From an uncultured Flavobacteriaceae bacterium (GTDB lineage Bacteria; Bacteroidota; Bacteroidia; Flavobacteriales; Flavobacteriaceae), in the NCBI GenBank assembly GCA_937929935.1, contig CALFUL010000023.1, positions 62,001-126,000 on the forward strand: a stretch of 64,000 nucleotides of DNA, read 5' to 3'. Positions within the stretch are counted from its first letter, which is position 1. Every line of letters starts with the position of its first letter. Made by a program: the position numbers and the translations under genes. The notes beneath the pieces were generated by a model. The model ran no database searches, was not told where the DNA came from, and saw nothing but the letters and a program-made list of their open reading frames with translations. Shown in pieces: positions 10,201-43,865 of this stretch.

Positions 10201-13200
10201 ATGAGAACAAAATTAAATGGAATCTTAACGCTGCTATTAGCGTTTGTTGTGCATTTATCTTTTGCACAAGACAAAACGATTACCGGTACGGTAACAGACC
10301 AAGATGGTCTACCCTTACCTGGTGTTAACATCGTTGTCGAAGGTACAACCAACGGTACCCAAACTGATTTTGATGGAAACTACGCTATTAATGGTAGCGA
10401 AGGTCAATCACTTCTTTTCTCCTATATAGGCCAAAAAGATGTTAGACAAACTATCGGCGGTGGAAGTACTATTAATGTACAAATGGAGGAGGACGCACAA
10501 GCTCTAGAAGAGGTTGTTGTAACTGCTCAAGGTATTAAGAGAGAGAAAAAAGCTCTTGGTTACGCCGTAACAACTGTAGGCTCAGAAGACTTAGAGTCTA
10601 AAGCTGAAGGTGATGTTGCCAGAGTATTAACTGGTAAAGCGGCTGGTGTTAATATTACAAGTGCTGGAGGTGCATCGGGATCTGCAACCAATGTTGTAAT
10701 TAGAGGTTTAAACTCTTTTAGTGGTAACAACCAAGCTTTATTTATTGTTGATGGTGTGCCTTTTAGTAATGACACTAACCAACAAGGTAGTTTCATTGGT
10801 GGTAACACGGGTGGTTCACGATTCTTGGATCTTGATCCTAACAATATCGCTAGTATCGAAGTACTTAAAGGTTTATCAGCTGCAACATTATATGGTACGC
10901 AAGGTCGTAATGGGGTAATTCTTGTTACTACTAAAGCTGCTTCTGCAACTGCAGGCCCTAAGAAAACTGAAATTACTTTAAATCAATCTTATTTCACGAA
11001 TGAAATGGCTTCATTACCTGAATACCAAAAACAATTTGGTAATGGTTTTGATCAGTCTTTTGGTTGGTTCTTTAGTAACTGGGGTCCTAGTTTTGATGAA
11101 GGTGGAACTGCAGGTTGGGGTGCCCAATCAGCTATTGATGCTAATGGTACATTAGCTCACCCATATTCTACAGCATCTGCAGCCACTGGAATTCCACAAG
11201 CTTTTCCTGAATTTGCAGGAGCAAGATATGATTGGAGACCTTATGACTCAGTTAAAAACTTTTTCAGTCCTGGAAATGTGGTGAACACTTCATTGAACAT
11301 TGCAGGAAGCACCCAAGATGGTAAAGCTTCTTTTAATGCCAATGTTGGTTACTTAGATGACGAAGGTTTTACACCTGGTAATACATTTACAAGAACTAAC
11401 ATTTCTTTAGGGGGTGTTGCTAAACTAAGTAATAAATTTACTGTTCGTGGTACTATGAACTACGCTAGATCAGATAACAAAACGCCACCAATTGCTTCAA
11501 GTAGAGGTAACGGTACAGATGGTTTATCTATTTATGGTAACGTATTCTTTACACCCTTAAGTGTTGATTTACTGGGTCTACCGTTTGAAAACCCAATTGA
11601 TGGTTCTAGTGTATACTACAGACAAAACAATAGTATCATTAACCCAAGATGGACGGCTAAGAATGTTCAATACAGACAGTTAACGAATCGTTTCTTCTGG
11701 AACTTATCTGCAGGTTACGAAATCAATGAAAACTTGAATTTAAACTGGAGATCTGGTCTTGATTTTTACAATGAAAGAAACATCAACAGTTCTAACAAAG
11801 GAGGTATTAATTTCAACAGTGCAATTTTTGGTTTCTTACAAACCTATGATAACAATAACACCATTTGGGATCATTTCGCCTCGATTAATGGTGATTATGA
11901 TTTATCTGAAAAAGTTGGTTTATCATTTACTGCTGGCGCAACGGCTCGTTCAGATTTCTATGATCGTTCAGGTGTAGGAAGTACGGGTCAATTAGTTTTT
12001 GGCGTTAAAAGACATTTTAACTATCAAAATCAAACTCCTATTCAATTCTCTAGAAAACGAAACATTGTTGGGGTTTTAGGACAAGCTACTATAGACTACG
12101 ATGATTTCTTATTCTTTAACGTAAGTGCTCGTAAAGATTGGGTATCTAACTTCCAACGCGCTAATAGATCTATTACGTATCCTGGAGCTAGTTTATCTTT
12201 TCTTCCAACGAACGCAATTCCTGGTTTAAAATCAGAAAACGGATTGAACTTCTTAAAATTAAGAGCAAGTTATGGTACTTCAGCAAACTTTGACGCTGAT
12301 GCCTCATATCCAACTGTTGGAACTGTGGATCAAAATACTCAGATATTTAATGCACAAGGCACATCTATAACTACCAACCAAATTTCTTCGGTTAGACCTA
12401 ATCCAGATTTAAAGCCGGAATTATTAGAAGAAATTGAACTAGGTTTTGAATCTAAATTGTTGAAAAATAGAGTATCACTTGATTTTACCTATTTCCACAA
12501 AACTACTAATGACTTAATAGTTGGGCAACCTTTACCTCCATCAACAGGGTTTTCAATAACCACAACCAATATTGGAGAAATTACGAATAAAGGTTTTGAA
12601 CTTGATTTTGGAGTTGACATATTTAAAGGAGAGAACTTCTCTTGGAATTCAAGAATGAACTTCTTTGCAAATGATCAGATTGTTACTGAACAAGAGGAAG
12701 ATGCTATATTTTATGCAGGTTCACTTGCTGAAGGTGGTGGTTTATTCAGAGGTTCGAATGCTGCGATTAAAGGTGAATCTTTAGGTACTATTGTTGGTAC
12801 AGCTATTGCCCGTGATGCAAATGGGGACTTTTTAGTCAATAGTGCTGGTTCATATGAAGTTGCTGAACAAGATGCTGATGGTAATGTGCCAATTATAGGT
12901 GATGCCATTGCTGATTATACAATGAACTTCATTAACTCGCTACGTTACAAAAACTTGAGTTTTAATTTCCAAATTAATCACACTAAAGGTGGTGACATGC
13001 TTTCAAGTACTGTTGCAACTTTATTAGGTAGAGGATTAATTGTAGAAACTCAAGATCGTGAGAACACATACGTTCTACCTGGTGTAAATGCTAATGGTGA
13101 TGTTAACAGAACTCAAATAAACAACTCAACATATTTCTTTAGTAACTTGTTATTTGGCCCTACTGAAACACGTATCTATGATGCCTCTGTTCTTAGATTA

Positions 13201-35794: not shown

Positions 35795-35893
35795 AAGCAA
35801 GAACGGCCTAGTTACCTCAATCAAAAGGACACTTTACTCAAAATTGGTTGTGAGCTATTGCTTTTCAACTCACTTTTGAAGTTTAAACCTATC

Positions 35894-38800
35894 ATGATGA
35901 AAAAATTAGCACTTTTAATTAGTATTGTTCTTTTGACCCAGTTCGTACAAGCGCAAGAAGCTTCACGAGAATATGAAACACTTTGGACCAAAGTTGAGAA
36001 CTACGAACTCAATGATTTGCCAAAATCAGCATTAGCATTGGTTGATTCAATTACTTCGAAAGCCAAAAAAGAAAAGAACAGTACACAAATAGTAAAAGCG
36101 CTTTTATATACTTCTAAATTTTCTTTAGTCTTAGAAGAAGATGCCCAATTAAAGATTGTAAATGATTTTAAAACTGAAATCGCCCAAGCTGAATTTCCAA
36201 CCAAAAACATTCTTGAAAATTATTTGGCCAAGCTCTATTGGCAGTATTATCAGCAAAATAGATATCGTTTTTACGATCGCACTAAAACAGATGCAAAAGT
36301 TGATTCTGTTGATTTTAGAACTTGGGATCTAAATACCCTTTTCAATGAAATAAATGCTCGCTTTGATAATTCTTTAGCTCGAGAAACTGAACTACAAAAG
36401 TTTCCTGTTTCTGAATTTGAATTGTTATTGCATAAAAAAGCTGATTCAGAAAAACACCGCCCTACCCTCTTTGATGTATTAGCACATTCAGCGCTTGATT
36501 TTTATAAGACTTCTGAAAATAGCATAACCAGACCCGCTGATAAATTTGAAATTAATCAGCCTGATTATATGTGTGAGGCTGCTCAATTTTCGCAACAAAA
36601 AATTAAAACCACTGATACCTCCTCTTTACAAGCGAAAGCTTTAATCATTTATCAAAAACTAATTGATTTTCATTTGAAAAACAATGCTACTGAAGCTATT
36701 GTTGAAATTGACTTAGAACGCTTAAAATTTATTCGTAACAACGCCGTATTTTCAGATAAAGACAAACAATTTCTTGAAGTTCTAAAAAATTCTGCTTCAA
36801 GTTTAAAACAAAAAGAACATGCCGCACTTTATCAGTATGAAATGGCGCTTTTACACCAAAATAAAGGACAGTCATATGACCCAAAAAGCAATGACAAATA
36901 TCGTTGGAAACTAAAACAGGCTCTTGAAATTTGTAATGCCATTATTGAAAAACATCCGAAAAGTAGGGCGGCAAAAAAATGTGCTTCTCTAAAATCACAA
37001 TTATTAAAAACTGAGCTTCAATTGACCGCTGAAGAGCACATCCCCATAAACACTATTTCAAGAGTACTCGTAAACTATAAAAATATCGACTCACTGAATT
37101 TTAGAGCGCTAAAGGTTACTGATTCTAAATTAAAAGCTTTTAACAAAATATATGAGCGTGATAAAAAGCTTGAATTTTTAAACAAATTAAAGGTTGCCAA
37201 AGCATGGTCATCGTCATTAAAAAATGAAAAAGATTATCAAACGCATAGTTCAGAAGTTAGTATACCTGTACTACCTGGGGGCACTTATTTACTTTTTGTA
37301 GAAACTGCTGATGATAAAAACACCTTTGCGTATAGTGAACTGCAAGTAACCAATATTGCCCTTACTGAACTAAGTACTGATAACCAACATATTTATCAGG
37401 TGGTTAATAGAAATGATGGCAGCCCCGTACCTAACGCGCAAGTAAAAATATCTTATAGTCGTAATTACAATCGCCCAAGACATACCATTACAAAAACTAC
37501 AAATCAATTAGGACAAGTTTTTATAGAGAAAAAATCAGCACGTTGGTCAAATGTTCAGGTTGCCATTACGCACCTTAAAGACAGCGCTACTTTTGGCGAT
37601 TATTATATTACTAATAAAAGAAAAGAAAGTATAGAAGAAGTGACCTCAAAAGCCTTTGTTTTTAATGATCGAAGTATTTACAGACCTGGCCAAACAGTAT
37701 ATTTTAAAGGTATTTTGGTTGAAACCTTCAAAAAAAAATCAACCCTATTGACTGATGAGTTAGTTGATGTGATTCTCTATGATGTTAATGATGACGAGGT
37801 CGCCGAGTTAGAATATAAGACCAATGAATATGGTTCTTTTTCTGGAGAAATCGTGCTACCTAACAACGGACTCACAGGGCAATATTACCTCGAAGTAGAT
37901 TATGATTCTGCTGATGATTATACGGAACACTACTTTTCAGTTGAAGAGTATAAAAGACCAAAATTTGAAACCTCATTTAAACCCGTTACTGAAACCTACA
38001 AAGTCAATGATAGCATTTTAGTTCAAGGCACCGCCACCGCTTATGCTGGCAGTAGTATTTCTGATGCAAAAGTGAGTTATCGGGTTAAAAGAATGGTGCA
38101 ATACCCGAGATGGTATTATTGGTACCGACCATATTTCAGTAGTGAGGCACAAGAAATTACGCATGGCGAAACAACTACCGATGACTCGGGTTTGTATAAA
38201 ATCAATTTTAAAGCCATACCCGATGCCAGTGTTGATGCGAAAAATCTTCCTGTTTTTAGGTATGAAGTTACTGCTGATGTCACTGACATCAACGGCGAAA
38301 CACATAGCACTAGCACTATAGTTTCTGTGGGCTATCACGCAGTAACGGCAAACCTAAGTATCAATACTAAAATTGATAAAGACCTTAAAGACAATAGTAT
38401 TGCTATCTCAACCCTAAACCTCAACGGGCAGCCCATTGACAATAAGGGTGTATTAAAAATGTACAAGCTTCAAGCACCCGAACATGTCTTGCGCGACCGC
38501 CCGTGGAAAGCACCTGACTATGACGGATTTACCCAATCAGAATTTAAAAAATTATACCCTCATGATGCCTTTAAAAACGAGCATGATTATTTTACATGGG
38601 AAAAAGGCAAATTGGTTTGGGAAGCTAATTATGACACCTCAAAATCAAAAGAGATTGAACTGGGCAGAACCAAAAAATGGACTTCTGGTAAATACATTAT
38701 TGAACTAGAAACCAAAGATAAATTTGGACAACTAGTAAAGGATATCGCATACACTACTTTGTCTAGCACAAAAGACAAAATGCTACCTGACCATCAACTT

Positions 38801-41800
38801 TTTGAAATAAAGACAGACAAACTTAAGTACAAACCTGGTGATGATGTGACTGTTTTATTAAGTACAGCGGCAGAAAACCTGAATGTGATGGTCTATGTTG
38901 AAAAAAAAGGTAAGCTCATTGATCGTAGGTTAGTGCGATTGAACCAAAACACCAAAAGTTTTAAAATACCGGTAACTACTGATGATTATGGCGGGTTTTC
39001 TGTTTCTTACGGGTTTACAGCTTTTAATTCTTTTAAATCTGGCGCTATAAATATTAGGGTGCCATATCCTAAAAAAGAATTAGAAATTGAAACGGCAACT
39101 TTTCGCGATAAATTACAACCCGGTATTGATGAAACTTGGGCTTTTAAAATCAAAGGTGCAAAAGGCGAAAAGGTAACTGCAGAATTGTTGGCAAATATGT
39201 ATGATGCCTCACTTGATGCTTTTAAAGGGCATTGGTGGAATTTCAATCCGTTATCACGGCCCTTGTATTACCCACAAATTCGCAATAGCGCAAGCCAGAG
39301 CTTTGGCACTTCAAATTTTAATGTGCAAACAATTTATCATCATAACCCTTTAGTTAATGATTATAGTTATGATAGTATTAAGTGGTTCGGGCTTTCACTA
39401 GGGAATAACTATTATCAACGAAGAAAATATCTTGCGAGTATCAGAGAAAGTAGATCCTCCTTATTTTTTTATAAGGATGATGTGCCTGAAGGATATGTAA
39501 ACGGAGAAATTAATGACCAAGACGGACTTCCCTTGCCTGGTGTAAACATAATGGTAAAAGGAACAACAAATGGTACAACCTCCGATTTTGATGGTAACTT
39601 CTCAATTCAAGTCAAAGAGGGTCAGACTTTGGTATTTAGCTTTATAGGACTTCTTGATATTGAGAAAAAAGTCAGCAATAATAATTTCTTTAAAATTTAT
39701 ATGGAAGAAAATTCCGATGCCTTAGAAGAAGTTGTGGTGGTTGGTTATGGCTCTACCACCAAAAAAAGCGTCACAGGGTCTGTTACAAGGGTTGCTTCAG
39801 AAGATTTAGAAGTCGATCAATTACTTGAAGGTAAAGTAGCTGGGGTTAATATTAGCTCCAATAAAGATAGTGCAGTTCCGCCACCAAGTGCACCCAATAA
39901 TAAACTAACAGATTTCACAGATGTCAAAATCCGTAAAAATCTGCAAGAAAATGCCTTTTTCTTTCCGCATTTAAAAACAGATGCTGAGGGCAATGTGAAT
40001 TTTAGTTTCACTACCCCTGAAGCCTTAACCAAATGGAATGTGCAATTATTAGCACACACCAAAAACCTAGAAAGTTCAATCATGAACCTTCAAACCGTTA
40101 CTCAAAAAGAGTTGATGGTCATACCCAATGCCCCCAGATTTCTACGTGAGGGCGATGAAATTATCATCAGCACTAAAATCGCCAACCTCACTAAGAAAGC
40201 ACTTGCAGGCCAAGCCAAACTTGAATTGGTTGATGCTGTAACAGGTCAAGACATCTCAAAAAAACTAATGCTTTCTCCCCCCTCGGGGGAGATGCCGAAG
40301 GCAGAGGGGGATTTTGAAGTTGATTCATTAGGCAATACCCAAGTATCATGGAAACTTTCAATTCCTGATGGTATTCAAGCTGTTCAATATAAAGTGATTG
40401 CCAAGGCAGGCGACTTTAGTGACGGCGAGCAAAATATGCTTCCGGTCTTGACAAATAGAATGTTGGTTACTGAAACCCTACCTATGTGGGTTCGCAGCAA
40501 TCAAACCAAAACCTTCACTTTAGATAAATTGAAGACAACGAAGTCGACAACGCTGAAACACCATAAGCTAACTTTAGAGATGACCAGCAATCCTGCGTGG
40601 TATGCTGTGCAGGCACTCCCCTATTTGATGGAGTACCCGTATGAATGTAACGAGCAAACCTTTTCAAGATACTATGCAAATACTTTAGCAAGTCATATCG
40701 CGAATAGCAATCCTAGAATTCAAGAGGTATTTAATCAATGGGCGAATTCAGATGCGTTGTTAAGTAATTTAGAAAAGAATCAAGAATTGAAATCCCTTTT
40801 AATTCAAGAAACCCCTTGGTTACGTGATGCGCAATCAGAAACGGAGCAGAAAAAGCGAATCGCATTACTATTCAATTTAAATAAAATGAATAGCGAACAA
40901 GCCAGGGCTTTGAAAAAGTTGCAGCAAAACCAAAAAGGTTCAGGTGCGTGGTCGTGGTTTAAAGGCGGAAGAGAAAATAGATATATCACGCAGCATATCG
41001 CAACTGGTTTTGGTCATTTAAAACACCTTTCTGTCACATCGAGCGGAGTCGAGATGCAATCGGCAATAAAAAAAGCAGTTGCTTATTTAGACAGCGAATT
41101 TGTAAAAGAGTACAACCAAATGAAAAAGTACGCTGATGATTTAAATGATGACCATTTGAGTAGAACACAAATTCATTACTTGTACATGCGTAGTTTTTTT
41201 AAGGATATTAAAACTTCTAAAAAGGTAGATGAATTAACTGCTTATTATCATGGCCAAGCACGTAATTATTGGAAAAACAACAACCTGTATACGCGTGGCA
41301 TGTTGGCTTTGATTATGCATCGAGCTGATGATTCTAAAACAGCAGAAAAGATACTTCGTGCTTTAGAAGAAAACAGTATAACTTCAGAAGAATTGGGCAT
41401 GTACTGGAAATCTAACACTAGCTCCTGGTATTGGTATCAAGCCCCAATTGAAACGCAAGCTTTATTAATTGAGACGTTTTCAGAAATTAATCCTGATGAT
41501 ATTACAACCATTGATAATCTTAAAATCTGGTTATTAAAGAATAAACAAACCAGTCAATGGAAAACAACAAAAGCAACTACTGAAGCCGTGTATGCTTTAT
41601 TACTTCAAGGTAATGATTGGTTATCAGTTACTGATGCCGTTGAAGTTTTGGTTGGAGGCGAAAAAATAGAACCCTCCAAATTAGAAAATGTAAAAGTTGA
41701 AGCAGGTACAGGATATTATAAAACTGCTTGGAATGGTTCGGAGGTACAACCCAAAATGGCAGAAGTACAAATTGCTAAAAAAGGAGATGGTATCGCTTGG

Positions 41801-42277
41801 GGAGCATTGTACTGGCAATATTTTGAAGATTTAGATAAAATTACTTCAGCAGAAACGCCTTTGAAACTGAAAAAGAAACTATTCTTGAAAAAGAATACCG
41901 ATACCGGAGAAGAAATTTCAGAAATCACACCTGACACCAGTTTAAAGGTTGGAGATTTGGTACGTGTGCGTATTGAATTAAAAGCTGACCGCGCGATGGA
42001 ATTTGTTCATATGAAAGATATGCGTGCCGCAAGTTTTGAGCCTATCAATGTTATTTCTAGATACAAATGGCAAGATGGTTTAGGGTATTACGAAGCCACC
42101 AAAGATGCGAGCACCAATTTCTTCTTTGATTATTTACCCAAAGGCGTTTATGTATTTGAGTATGACTTAAGAGTTAATAATGCCGGTAATTTTAGTAATG
42201 GTATTACAACCATTCAAAGCATGTATGCCCCTGAGTTTTCAAGTCATTCTGAAGGGGTTCGAGTGAATGTAAACTAA
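35894..42277 (+). CDS. Alpha-2-macroglobulin-like (MG/A2M, thioester) protein with inserted SusC-type CarboxypepD_reg + plug segment
   Basis: Signal peptide MMKKLALLISIVLLTQFVQAQ; SIYRPGQTVYFKGILVE (MG2), A2M segment ENAFFFPHLKTDAEGNVNFSFTTPEALTKWNV, CNEQ thioester motif; ATG 35894/35897 preferred over TTG 35858. Confidence 0.9.
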   Translation: MMKKLALLISIVLLTQFVQAQEASREYETLWTKVENYELNDLPKSALALVDSITSKAKKEKNSTQIVKALLYTSKFSLVLEEDAQLKIVNDFKTEIAQAEFPTKNILENYLAKLYWQYYQQNRYRFYDRTKTDAKVDSVDFRTWDLNTLFNEINARFDNSLARETELQKFPVSEFELLLHKKADSEKHRPTLFDVLAHSALDFYKTSENSITRPADKFEINQPDYMCEAAQFSQQKIKTTDTSSLQAKALIIYQKLIDFHLKNNATEAIVEIDLERLKFIRNNAVFSDKDKQFLEVLKNSASSLKQKEHAALYQYEMALLHQNKGQSYDPKSNDKYRWKLKQALEICNAIIEKHPKSRAAKKCASLKSQLLKTELQLTAEEHIPINTISRVLVNYKNIDSLNFRALKVTDSKLKAFNKIYERDKKLEFLNKLKVAKAWSSSLKNEKDYQTHSSEVSIPVLPGGTYLLFVETADDKNTFAYSELQVTNIALTELSTDNQHIYQVVNRNDGSPVPNAQVKISYSRNYNRPRHTITKTTNQLGQVFIEKKSARWSNVQVAITHLKDSATFGDYYITNKRKESIEEVTSKAFVFNDRSIYRPGQTVYFKGILVETFKKKSTLLTDELVDVILYDVNDDEVAELEYKTNEYGSFSGEIVLPNNGLTGQYYLEVDYDSADDYTEHYFSVEEYKRPKFETSFKPVTETYKVNDSILVQGTATAYAGSSISDAKVSYRVKRMVQYPRWYYWYRPYFSSEAQEITHGETTTDDSGLYKINFKAIPDASVDAKNLPVFRYEVTADVTDINGETHSTSTIVSVGYHAVTANLSINTKIDKDLKDNSIAISTLNLNGQPIDNKGVLKMYKLQAPEHVLRDRPWKAPDYDGFTQSEFKKLYPHDAFKNEHDYFTWEKGKLVWEANYDTSKSKEIELGRTKKWTSGKYIIELETKDKFGQLVKDIAYTTLSSTKDKMLPDHQLFEIKTDKLKYKPGDDVTVLLSTAAENLNVMVYVEKKGKLIDRRLVRLNQNTKSFKIPVTTDDYGGFSVSYGFTAFNSFKSGAINIRVPYPKKELEIETATFRDKLQPGIDETWAFKIKGAKGEKVTAELLANMYDASLDAFKGHWWNFNPLSRPLYYPQIRNSASQSFGTSNFNVQTIYHHNPLVNDYSYDSIKWFGLSLGNNYYQRRKYLASIRESRSSLFFYKDDVPEGYVNGEINDQDGLPLPGVNIMVKGTTNGTTSDFDGNFSIQVKEGQTLVFSFIGLLDIEKKVSNNNFFKIYMEENSDALEEVVVVGYGSTTKKSVTGSVTRVASEDLEVDQLLEGKVAGVNISSNKDSAVPPPSAPNNKLTDFTDVKIRKNLQENAFFFPHLKTDAEGNVNFSFTTPEALTKWNVQLLAHTKNLESSIMNLQTVTQKELMVIPNAPRFLREGDEIIISTKIANLTKKALAGQAKLELVDAVTGQDISKKLMLSPPSGEMPKAEGDFEVDSLGNTQVSWKLSIPDGIQAVQYKVIAKAGDFSDGEQNMLPVLTNRMLVTETLPMWVRSNQTKTFTLDKLKTTKSTTLKHHKLTLEMTSNPAWYAVQALPYLMEYPYECNEQTFSRYYANTLASHIANSNPRIQEVFNQWANSDALLSNLEKNQELKSLLIQETPWLRDAQSETEQKKRIALLFNLNKMNSEQARALKKLQQNQKGSGAWSWFKGGRENRYITQHIATGFGHLKHLSVTSSGVEMQSAIKKAVAYLDSEFVKEYNQMKKYADDLNDDHLSRTQIHYLYMRSFFKDIKTSKKVDELTAYYHGQARNYWKNNNLYTRGMLALIMHRADDSKTAEKILRALEENSITSEELGMYWKSNTSSWYWYQAPIETQALLIETFSEINPDDITTIDNLKIWLLKNKQTSQWKTTKATTEAVYALLLQGNDWLSVTDAVEVLVGGEKIEPSKLENVKVEAGTGYYKTAWNGSEVQPKMAEVQIAKKGDGIAWGALYWQYFEDLDKITSAETPLKLKKKLFLKKNTDTGEEISEITPDTSLKVGDLVRVRIELKADRAMEFVHMKDMRAASFEPINVISRYKWQDGLGYYEATKDASTNFFFDYLPKGVYVFEYDLRVNNAGNFSNGITTIQSMYAPEFSSHSEGVRVNVN
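39491..39905 (+). other. In-frame SusC-like CarboxypepD_reg/TonB-plug-like segment inside A2M gene
   Basis: YVNGEINDQDGLPLPGVNIMVKGTTNGTTSDFDGNFSI...SDALEEVVVVGYGSTTKKSVTGSVTRVASEDLEVDQLLEGKVAGVNISS aligns to the SusC N-terminus at 10270-10670. Confidence 0.9.
40273..40312. repeat. GC-rich double-hairpin palindromic element translated in frame
   Basis: tctcccccctcgggggagatgccgaaggcagaggggga: CTCCCC/GGGGAG and TGCC/GGCA hairpins in an AT-rich genome; encodes LSPPSGEMPKAEGD. Confidence 0.7.
40646..40657 (+). other. Codons for CxEQ thioester motif (CNEQ)
   Basis: TGT AAC GAG CAA within YPYECNEQTFSRYYA. Confidence 0.8.
41031..41056. repeat. Flavobacterial intergenic-repeat-like element translated in frame
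   Basis: ctgtcacatcgagcggagtcgagatg; encodes SVTSSGVEM. Confidence 0.55.
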
Positions 42278-42414: not shown

Positions 42415-42855
42415 ATGAAAAATGTATTTAAAATCTCAGTAAAAACAGTTTGCTCAATTTTCCTTTTTGTCATTTTTAATGGGCAGGCACAAGAAGCAAC
42501 TAGCACAGACAATACAGCTAAAACCTATGCCATTGCAGGAACAGTTCTTGAAGATGATAGTTTTCCCTTAGAAGGTGTAAACATTATTCTAAAAGATAGT
42601 AAAGAAGGTGTAGTAACCAATGAGAATGGTAAATTCAAGTTCACTAGAAAGCTAGCCCTTGGCGATGTATTAGTATTCAGCTTTATTGGCTTTCAGCCTC
42701 AAGAGTATGTTATTAGTGCTGATGATATGGCCAATCAAAACATTGCTATCTCTTTTGACTCTTCAAATATAACACTCATGGGTGCTTTAGAAGTTGACGG
42801 CGTTTATCATTCTAAACGAAACATTTTTCAAAAATTCGTAGGCCTTTTCAAATGA
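42415..42855 (+). CDS. Secreted stand-alone CarboxypepD_reg-like protein
   Basis: YAIAGTVLEDDSFPLEGVNIILKDSKEGVVTNENGKFKF...VFSFIGFQPQE. Confidence 0.85.
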   Translation: MKNVFKISVKTVCSIFLFVIFNGQAQEATSTDNTAKTYAIAGTVLEDDSFPLEGVNIILKDSKEGVVTNENGKFKFTRKLALGDVLVFSFIGFQPQEYVISADDMANQNIAISFDSSNITLMGALEVDGVYHSKRNIFQKFVGLFK

Positions 42856-43865
42856 AAAAGTACTATCTAATAATTATTTTCTTAATCGGAACGTTTTCTT
42901 TCGGACAACGTTCCGATTTTGAATCTATTAGTTTTAAAAAAGCAGACAGTATTGCACTAAAATATTCAGGGGCAAGTCTTGAAAATTTACCCGTTCTTAC
43001 CTATCATTTAACTTCTGATTTAAATACAGATGTCGAAAAATTTAGAGCCATATATACCTGGGTATGCACAAACATTAAAAACGATTATTCATCATACCAA
43101 AAAACCATTCGAAAGCGTAAAAAATTTGCTGAAGATCAGGTAGCCTTAGCAGCATGGAATTCTAAAGAACTACCAAAAGTTTTTGAAAATCTTATCAAAC
43201 ACAAAAAAACAGCCTGTACTGGCTACGCATATTTACTGCGTGAAATGGCAAGTTTAGCCGATCTACATTGCAAAATTGTAAATGGGTATGGCAGAACATC
43301 GACAACCTTACTCGATGAAAAAAGTATACCCAACCATTCTTGGAACACCGTTGAATTAAATAAAAAACTATACTTGTGTGACCCCACTTGGTCAGCAGGA
43401 AGAATTTATATTGACGAAGACGGGGCGCGTTTTGAAGCTGATTATTTCGATGGCTATTTTTTGGCTGAACCTGAACTATTTATCAAAAATCATTATCCTC
43501 TTGAAATAAAAGCTGCTCTATTAAAAAAACCACCAACTTTAAAGCAGTTTATTGAAGGGCCAATAATTTATAAGGAAGCTTTTCAATTAAATATATTTCC
43601 GGTTGCACCACTCAAAATGAACCTTACTATTCAGAAAAATGAACGTTTAGAATTTACCCTAGGTTCTTCTACAAATCTTTTGGATACAAAAATGAATCTC
43701 GCCATTTTTAATGGTAAAAGCACTGAGGATTTTGCCTTAGATGTACAAAAAATAAAGAACACCTATACCATACAACATGGGTTCGCTAAAACCGGCCAAT
43801 TTGATGTGCATTTAAAAGTTAATGAAACGCTAGTAGCCACCTATGTTGTTCGTGTCAAGCGTTAG
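42852..43865 (+). CDS. Secreted transglutaminase-like (papain-fold) protein
   Basis: FRAIYTWVCTNIKNDY, KTACTGYAYLLREMA (Cys), NHSWNTVELNKKLYLCDPTWSAG (His/Asp); 4-nt overlap with upstream gene. Confidence 0.85.
   Translation: MKKYYLIIIFLIGTFSFGQRSDFESISFKKADSIALKYSGASLENLPVLTYHLTSDLNTDVEKFRAIYTWVCTNIKNDYSSYQKTIRKRKKFAEDQVALAAWNSKELPKVFENLIKHKKTACTGYAYLLREMASLADLHCKIVNGYGRTSTTLLDEKSIPNHSWNTVELNKKLYLCDPTWSAGRIYIDEDGARFEADYFDGYFLAEPELFIKNHYPLEIKAALLKKPPTLKQFIEGPIIYKEAFQLNIFPVAPLKMNLTIQKNERLEFTLGSSTNLLDTKMNLAIFNGKSTEDFALDVQKIKNTYTIQHGFAKTGQFDVHLKVNETLVATYVVRVKR

What the first reader, a model, noticed from the sequence alone, without database searches (positions are those of the whole stretch)
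39491..39905. Alpha-2-macroglobulin with a SusC-type CarboxypepD_reg/TonB-plug segment in the bait-region position
Seen: the 2.1-kaa A2M-like ORF contains YVNGEINDQDGLPLPGVNIMVKGTTNGTTSDFDGNFSIQVKEGQTLVFSFIG...MEENSDALEEVVVVGYGSTTKKSVTGSVTRVASEDLEVDQLLEGKVAGVNISS. This is nearly colinear with the N-terminus of the SusC at 10201 in the same window. No barrel follows; the A2M segment (ENAFFFPHLKTDAEGNVNFSFTTPEALTKWNV) and CNEQ thioester follow directly. Knowledge: in A2Ms the protease-cleaved bait region lies just before the PF00207 segment. Inference: protease cleavage or thioester activation could release or expose a plug/TonB-box-like element, coupling protease sensing to envelope transport or signalling.
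Basis: partly seen in the sequence, partly recalled or inferred. Interest (0 to 1): 0.75.

Follow-up and report, generated by a model that had tools for sequence, protein, structure and literature searches.

The report
Protease trap baited with transporter fragment
A bacterial protease-trapping protein (alpha-2-macroglobulin) carries, exactly where proteases must cut it, a piece copied from the front end of the bacterium's own outer-membrane nutrient transporters; many relatives show the same swap in intact, truncated or shuffled form, which suggests the trap is baited with a look-alike of the cell's own transporters.

Summary
The window's alpha-2-macroglobulin (A2M; ATG 35894 to 42277, +) has, between its bait-region domain and PF00207, a SusC-type N-terminal domain (NTE, PF13715), a TonB box (LEEVVVVGYG) and about 36 residues of plug start. 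There is no barrel and no PF07715 hit. A 24-residue linker joins it to the conserved Arg of the alpha'NT strand, so it occupies the bait/anaphylatoxin position. It is not an isolated oddity. Of about 220 Bacteroidota A2Ms examined, 37 carry the NTE, 31 the C-terminal half of a plug, and 100 of 220 loops carry at least one SusC motif. All 63 SusC-profile hits of 20 bits or more lie in the bait position. NTE presence needs at least 19 changes on the A2M tree. Some loops hold the motifs in permuted order, and one lineage carries an Oar-type transporter's TonB-box segment instead. AlphaFold gives a folded NTE and a disordered strand that starts at the TonB box and runs into the alpha'NT. Best explanation: a folded spacer plus a cleavable TonB-box/plug strand forms the bait. 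I found no paper describing this.

The parts
35894..42277 (+). alpha-2-macroglobulin family gene (2127 aa from first ATG; ORF open from TTG 35858)
   Evidence: MG2, A2M_BRD, A2M, bMG10 Pfam domains all above gathering score
35894..35956 (+). likely Sec signal peptide (MMKKLALLISIVLLTQFVQAQ), no lipobox Cys
   Evidence: read from sequence; inference, no predictor run
37649..37942 (+). MG2 domain PF01835
38804..39175 (+). A2M bait-region domain PF07703
39497..39739 (+). SusC-type NTE (PF13715, transthyretin-like) inserted in the bait position; Pfam boundary overlaps the start of the TonB box
   Evidence: AF2 pLDDT mostly >90; homologous model (L240) matches PDB 9hfj SusC NTE, TMt 0.84
39722..39751 (+). 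TonB box LEEVVVVGYG
   Evidence: TIGR04056 match; corresponds to the VDEVVV box needed for function in Bt1763 (PMC7782687)
39752..39859 (+). first ~36 residues of a SusC plug (STTKKSVTGSVTRVASEDLEVDQLLEGKVAGVNISS); truncated, predicted disordered
   Evidence: no PF07715 hit; pLDDT 30-42
39860..39931 (+). 24-residue Pro/Ser/Asn-rich linker to the alpha'NT
   Evidence: sequence, pLDDT <50
39932..39961 (+). alpha'NT-like strand RKNLQENAFF; Arg >=90% invariant over 140 A2Ms
   Evidence: R322; equated by inference with the human A2M R732/F735 plug-in-channel strand (PMC9352918)
39953..40213 (+). A2M domain PF00207
   Evidence: profile of this segment matches complement C5
40646..40657 (+). thioester motif CNEQ
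41861..42235 (+). bMG10 domain PF17973

Best explanation
It is a thioester-containing (Type I-like) periplasmic protease-trapping A2M whose bait loop was built from the N-terminus of a SusC-type TonB-dependent transporter. The folded NTE sits in the bait/anaphylatoxin position as a compact spacer. A disordered strand of about 70-80 residues (TonB box, plug start, linker) runs from it into the alpha'NT strand. Cleavage anywhere in that strand breaks the tether, lets the alpha'NT retract, collapses the ring and exposes the thioester to capture the protease. The transporter-derived sequence most likely persists because it is a good, substrate-like bait: in the cell the same strand is an exposed, flexible periplasmic part of many transporters. 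The loop is evolutionarily labile, with intact, truncated, permuted and decayed versions across Bacteroidota. Shown here: position, homology, lability, donor bias, predicted fold and disorder. Inferred: cleavage, trapping, localisation and the bait-mimicry reason.
For: Domain order and position. Insert-less orthologues have a shorter loop in the same place. AF2: NTE pLDDT mostly >90, strand from the TonB box to the alpha'NT <50; NTE fold confirmed by Foldseek on the L240 model. 63/63 SusC-profile hits in the bait window. Motif scan: 100/220 loops carry a SusC motif, about 0.2 per motif expected at that threshold. Donor bias: tallies of 140 bait segments list SusC NTE, SusC signature and Plug among the leading non-A2M families. 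Oar-type TonB-box segment in L056, 53% identical over 51 aa to a TBDT-like ORF. Purifying selection on the insert, dN/dS 0.09-0.30 where calculable. Literature: E. coli bait region is disordered and lies in MG8 (PMC4498604); human A2M works with a Gly/Ser bait, and continuity and length matter (PMC9352918).
Against: No biochemical evidence. Bait sequence is known to be freely replaceable, so no special reason for transporter sequence is required. Many orthologues do without it. The thioester motif is absent in several insert-bearing relatives (L125, L121, L123, L140, L141, L238), so in those covalent trapping cannot be the reason for keeping it. Purifying selection on a folded NTE could also mean a binding role.
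Confidence: 0.5

Rival explanations
1. Neutral passenger: the bait loop tolerates almost any sequence, SusC genes are abundant, so a fragment was captured, is inherited and erodes without a function of its own.
For: Bait sequence is replaceable in human A2M (PMC9352918); graded decay series within one genus; one origin of SusC-type inserts not rejected (p-AU 0.84); many transporter genes per genome.
Against: Purifying selection (insert dN/dS 0.09-0.30); folded NTE kept at long distance; donor bias to TBDT N-termini and an Oar-type example.
Confidence: 0.2
2. TonB-coupled sensor: the TonB box in the bait binds the TonB C-terminal domain, so the A2M docks at the TonB/ExbBD machinery, and protease cleavage releases or exposes the NTE-TonB-box element (as C5a is released from C5), signalling to or competing with transporters.
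For: TonB box as intact in A2M inserts as in real SusCs; low dN/dS across the insert; barrel-less NTE + EEVVV proteins and an M56-TonB_C-Plug protein elsewhere in the same genome; a different TBDT family's TonB-box segment also found in a bait.
Against: Box lost or degraded in most close orthologues and often broken in other families; permuted and remnant loops would not present a correctly spaced box; no partner or binding evidence.
Confidence: 0.15
3. Fold spacer only: the transthyretin-like NTE matters as a mechanical or steric spacer like the anaphylatoxin domain, and the TonB box came along with it.
For: NTE well folded; extending the human bait by 10-20 unstructured residues favours collapse (PMC9352918), so a long insert should need a folded element; several A2Ms (L087, L079, L051) hold only a transthyretin-like domain there.
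Against: Many loops keep TonB-box or plug motifs and no NTE.
Confidence: 0.15

Closest known systems
E. coli / Salmonella Type I A2M (YfhM/ECAM, SaA2M)
   Same: MG-domain architecture, bait region before PF00207, CxEQ thioester, PF07703/PF00207/bMG10
   Different: their bait is a short disordered loop; here it contains a SusC NTE, TonB box and plug start
Complement C3/C4/C5
   Same: a folded domain (anaphylatoxin) inserted at the corresponding point before the alpha'NT; the post-insert profile matches C5
   Different: inserted domain is transthyretin-like and transporter-derived, not a helical anaphylatoxin
SusC/RagA TonB-dependent transporters (TIGR04056), e.g. Bt1763
   Same: NTE, TonB box and plug start in the same order, about 50% identity to the window SusC
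   Different: no complete plug, no barrel, embedded in an A2M
Pseudomonas MagD (Type II A2M)
   Same: reported to trap proteases through its bait (PMC5764988); insert-bearing relatives that lack CxEQ resemble Type II in that respect
   Different: the window protein keeps CNEQ; no mag-type operon was recognised among the scanned neighbours

Membership tests
alpha-2-macroglobulin family, Type I bacterial | MG2, bait-region domain, PF00207 and C-terminal MG10 in order | tested here: met
   all four above gathering score
alpha-2-macroglobulin family, Type I bacterial | CxEQ thioester motif | tested here: met
   CNEQ at 40646-40657
alpha-2-macroglobulin family, Type I bacterial | bait cleavage triggers covalent protease trapping | not testable with these tools
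   needs biochemistry
alpha-2-macroglobulin family, Type I bacterial | gene pairing with pbpC | not tested
   scanned window neighbours are SDR, NTE-only protein, transglutaminase, LRR; no dedicated pbpC search made
SusC/RagA TonB-dependent transporter | beta-barrel | tested here: not met
   no PF00593; TIGR04056 matches only positions 3-131 of 981, 142.6 bits vs cut-off 368
SusC/RagA TonB-dependent transporter | complete plug domain PF07715 | tested here: not met
   no hit in the window protein; hit in relatives such as L145, L149
SusC/RagA TonB-dependent transporter | NTE followed by TonB box | tested here: met

The most novel reading that the evidence does not exclude
Bacteroidota A2Ms recruit the TonB-box/plug strand of TonB-dependent transporters as bait because it is functionally read: the A2M is tied to the TonB machinery, and cleavage by an invading protease both fires the trap and frees a TonB-binding, transporter-mimicking element that changes outer-membrane transport, a bacterial analogue of anaphylatoxin release.
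Probability: 0.12. Interest if true: 0.88.

Novelty: new variant of a known kind. Interest (0 to 1): 0.62.

Why it matters
Bait regions decide which proteases an A2M catches, and the natural targets of bacterial A2Ms are poorly known. A bait made from the cell's own transporter N-terminus points to a concrete, testable target: proteases that attack TonB-dependent transporters. It also gives a natural series of intact, truncated, permuted and lost baits in close orthologues, and a bacterial parallel to the anaphylatoxin domain of complement.

Tried and rejected
(1) Isolated oddity or assembly chimera: rejected, seen in two other species of the genus and many genera. (2) Complete plug in the window protein: rejected, no PF07715. 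(3) Repeated independent SusC captures: the quick tree suggested at least two origins (L148 among SusCs), but the AU test does not reject one origin (p 0.84; the second test did not finish), so I do not claim it; only the Oar-type bait (L056) looks separately derived. (4) Recombinational exchange of the bait cassette: lower silent divergence in the insert of Tenacibaculum L229/L230 turned out to be one of several low-divergence tracts along the gene and is absent in L121/L123; not claimed. (5) Strict TonB-box conservation as proof of TonB function: rejected by the survey of the genus and of a second family, f5. (7) Literature searches linking A2M with TonB or plug returned nothing relevant. 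(8) The first two runs of the profile script failed on a regex; one search is the valid one.

Full report
Observation. The + strand ORF 35858(TTG)/35894(ATG)-42277 encodes an A2M. Residue numbers below count from nt 35891. Pfam finds MG2 587-684, A2M_BRD PF07703 972-1095, CarbopepD_reg_2 PF13715 1203-1283 (E 6e-17), A2M PF00207 1355-1441 and bMG10 1991-2115, and no Plug. NCBIfam aligns TIGR04056 (SusC/RagA) positions 3-131 of 981 to 1203-1325, E 1.7e-41, far below the family cut-off because the barrel is missing. Solved SusC/RagA chains match the same stretch. The segment is 50% identical to the SusC at 10201 over about 131 residues. So the segment is NTE + TonB box (LEEVVVVGYG, 1278-1287) + the first ~36 residues of a plug.

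Position. The insert lies between PF07703 and PF00207. A 24-residue linker separates it from an Arg (1348) that is at least 90% invariant over 140 Bacteroidota A2Ms. A profile of the following 440 residues matches complement C5; from my knowledge of C5 numbering the aligned start lies shortly after C5a. In human A2M the strand after the bait carries R732 and F735 and threads a channel (PMC9352918); equating RKNL with it is my inference. The E. coli bait region lies within MG8 and is largely disordered (PMC4498604). The insert therefore occupies the bait/anaphylatoxin position.

Model. AlphaFold2 on residues 960-1480 with 64 sequences (mean pLDDT 66.8, pTM 0.42, so domain packing is not reliable) gives an NTE mostly above 90 and values under 50 from residue 1278, the first residue of the TonB box, to about 1358. 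For the full-plug relative L240 (pTM 0.34) the NTE is 85-95, the TonB-box/plug-start strand 30-44, and the C-terminal half of the plug about 58-84. Foldseek of the L240 model puts the SusC NTE 9hfj first (TMt 0.84), followed by complement structures.

Survey. PF00207 occurs in 167 of 396 sampled genomes of the phylum. Of 140 bait segments, 31 match TIGR04056, 18 TIGR04057, 30 PF13715 and 18 PF07715 at E <= 0.01. With 80 further named loci, mostly Flavobacteriaceae, I examined 220 A2Ms. A profile made from SusC N-termini has 63 hits of 20 bits or more in the bait window and none elsewhere. A motif scan calibrated on shuffled loops finds TonB box 66, plug signature 60, IRG 41, DG 28 and plug C-end 32, against about 0.2 expected for each; 100 loops have at least one. 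About 17 loops have the order permuted, with the plug signature or IRG motif before the TonB box. The sample is not phylogenetically independent.

Lability and origin. On a tree of the post-insert core, NTE presence (37 tips) needs at least 19 changes, plug C-half 14, any SusC motif 36. In the window's genus 3 of 14 long A2Ms keep the NTE; others keep remnants such as LEESVQDALAGRVAGVSL. A tree of 36 inserts and 91 SusCs put 31 of the A2M inserts in one moderately supported cluster that also holds 5 SusCs; an AU test on a subset does not reject a single origin. One bait (L056) instead carries SERPLIEKSSTNTTRIV, 53% identical over 51 residues to the corresponding segment of a 999-aa TBDT-like ORF in another genome, so a separate recruitment is likely; L041 and L037 look similar but were not tested as fully.

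Selection. In pairs where it could be calculated, dN/dS is 0.09-0.30 in the insert and 0.05-0.37 in the NTE, against 0.05-0.16 in the core regions. dS is near saturation in several pairs, so values are rough. TonB boxes are as well formed in A2M inserts as in SusCs (strict 20/36 vs 39/91). Against a general TonB requirement, most insert-less orthologues lack an intact box, and the CxEQ motif is missing by regex in 76 of 220 A2Ms, including some with full inserts.

Interpretation. Known A2M mechanics say that continuity of the bait matters, sequence does not, and unstructured extension by 10-20 residues favours collapse in human A2M (PMC9352918). A 120-residue insert is easiest to accommodate as a folded domain plus one flexible strand, which is what the model shows. 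I therefore favour a bait built from transporter sequence, cut in the TonB-box/plug strand. Why transporter sequence is favoured over others is inference: substrate mimicry is my first choice, then neutral inheritance, a spacer role, and TonB coupling. In a SusC (Bt1763) the TonB box is required for uptake, while the NTE is important but its role is unknown (PMC7782687).

Knowledge status. Searches of the held open-access library for A2M with TonB, plug or Bacteroidetes bait found no description. Most subscription papers and all preprints were not searchable, so prior description is possible.

Noticed in passing
window 42415-43865 +: Directly downstream: a 146-aa NTE-only (PF13715) protein and a transglutaminase-like protein; found near the A2M in about 5 of 80 related loci, e.g. 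L174, L177, L217.
   Followed up: partly
L414 (G000:C10:65000-74500), L415, L416, L417, L418: The same genome holds several barrel-less NTE + EEVVV-type proteins, a plug-only 211-aa ORF next to an M24-type peptidase ORF, and an M56 peptidase-TonB_C-Plug protein.
   Followed up: partly
L131, L151, L189, L191, L201, L222 (bait loops): SusC motifs in permuted order (plug signature or IRG before the TonB box), perhaps from tandem duplication and partial deletion.
   Followed up: partly
L056, L041, L037: A2M baits with Oar-type TonB-box or TTR-plug segments (SERPLIEK / DERPMIQR) rather than SusC type.
   Followed up: partly
L125, L121, L123, L140, L141, L238: A2Ms with an NTE-plus-plug insert but no CxEQ thioester motif.
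   Followed up: no
L229 vs L230 (Tenacibaculum): Silent divergence along the A2M gene is patchy (0.06 to 0.41), suggesting mosaic recombination in several tracts including the bait.
   Followed up: partly
G000:C11:146621-146863 (L166): A second A2M paralogue (1852-aa ORF) in the same genome; my Bacteroidota A2M profile did not match it and its bait was not examined.
   Followed up: no
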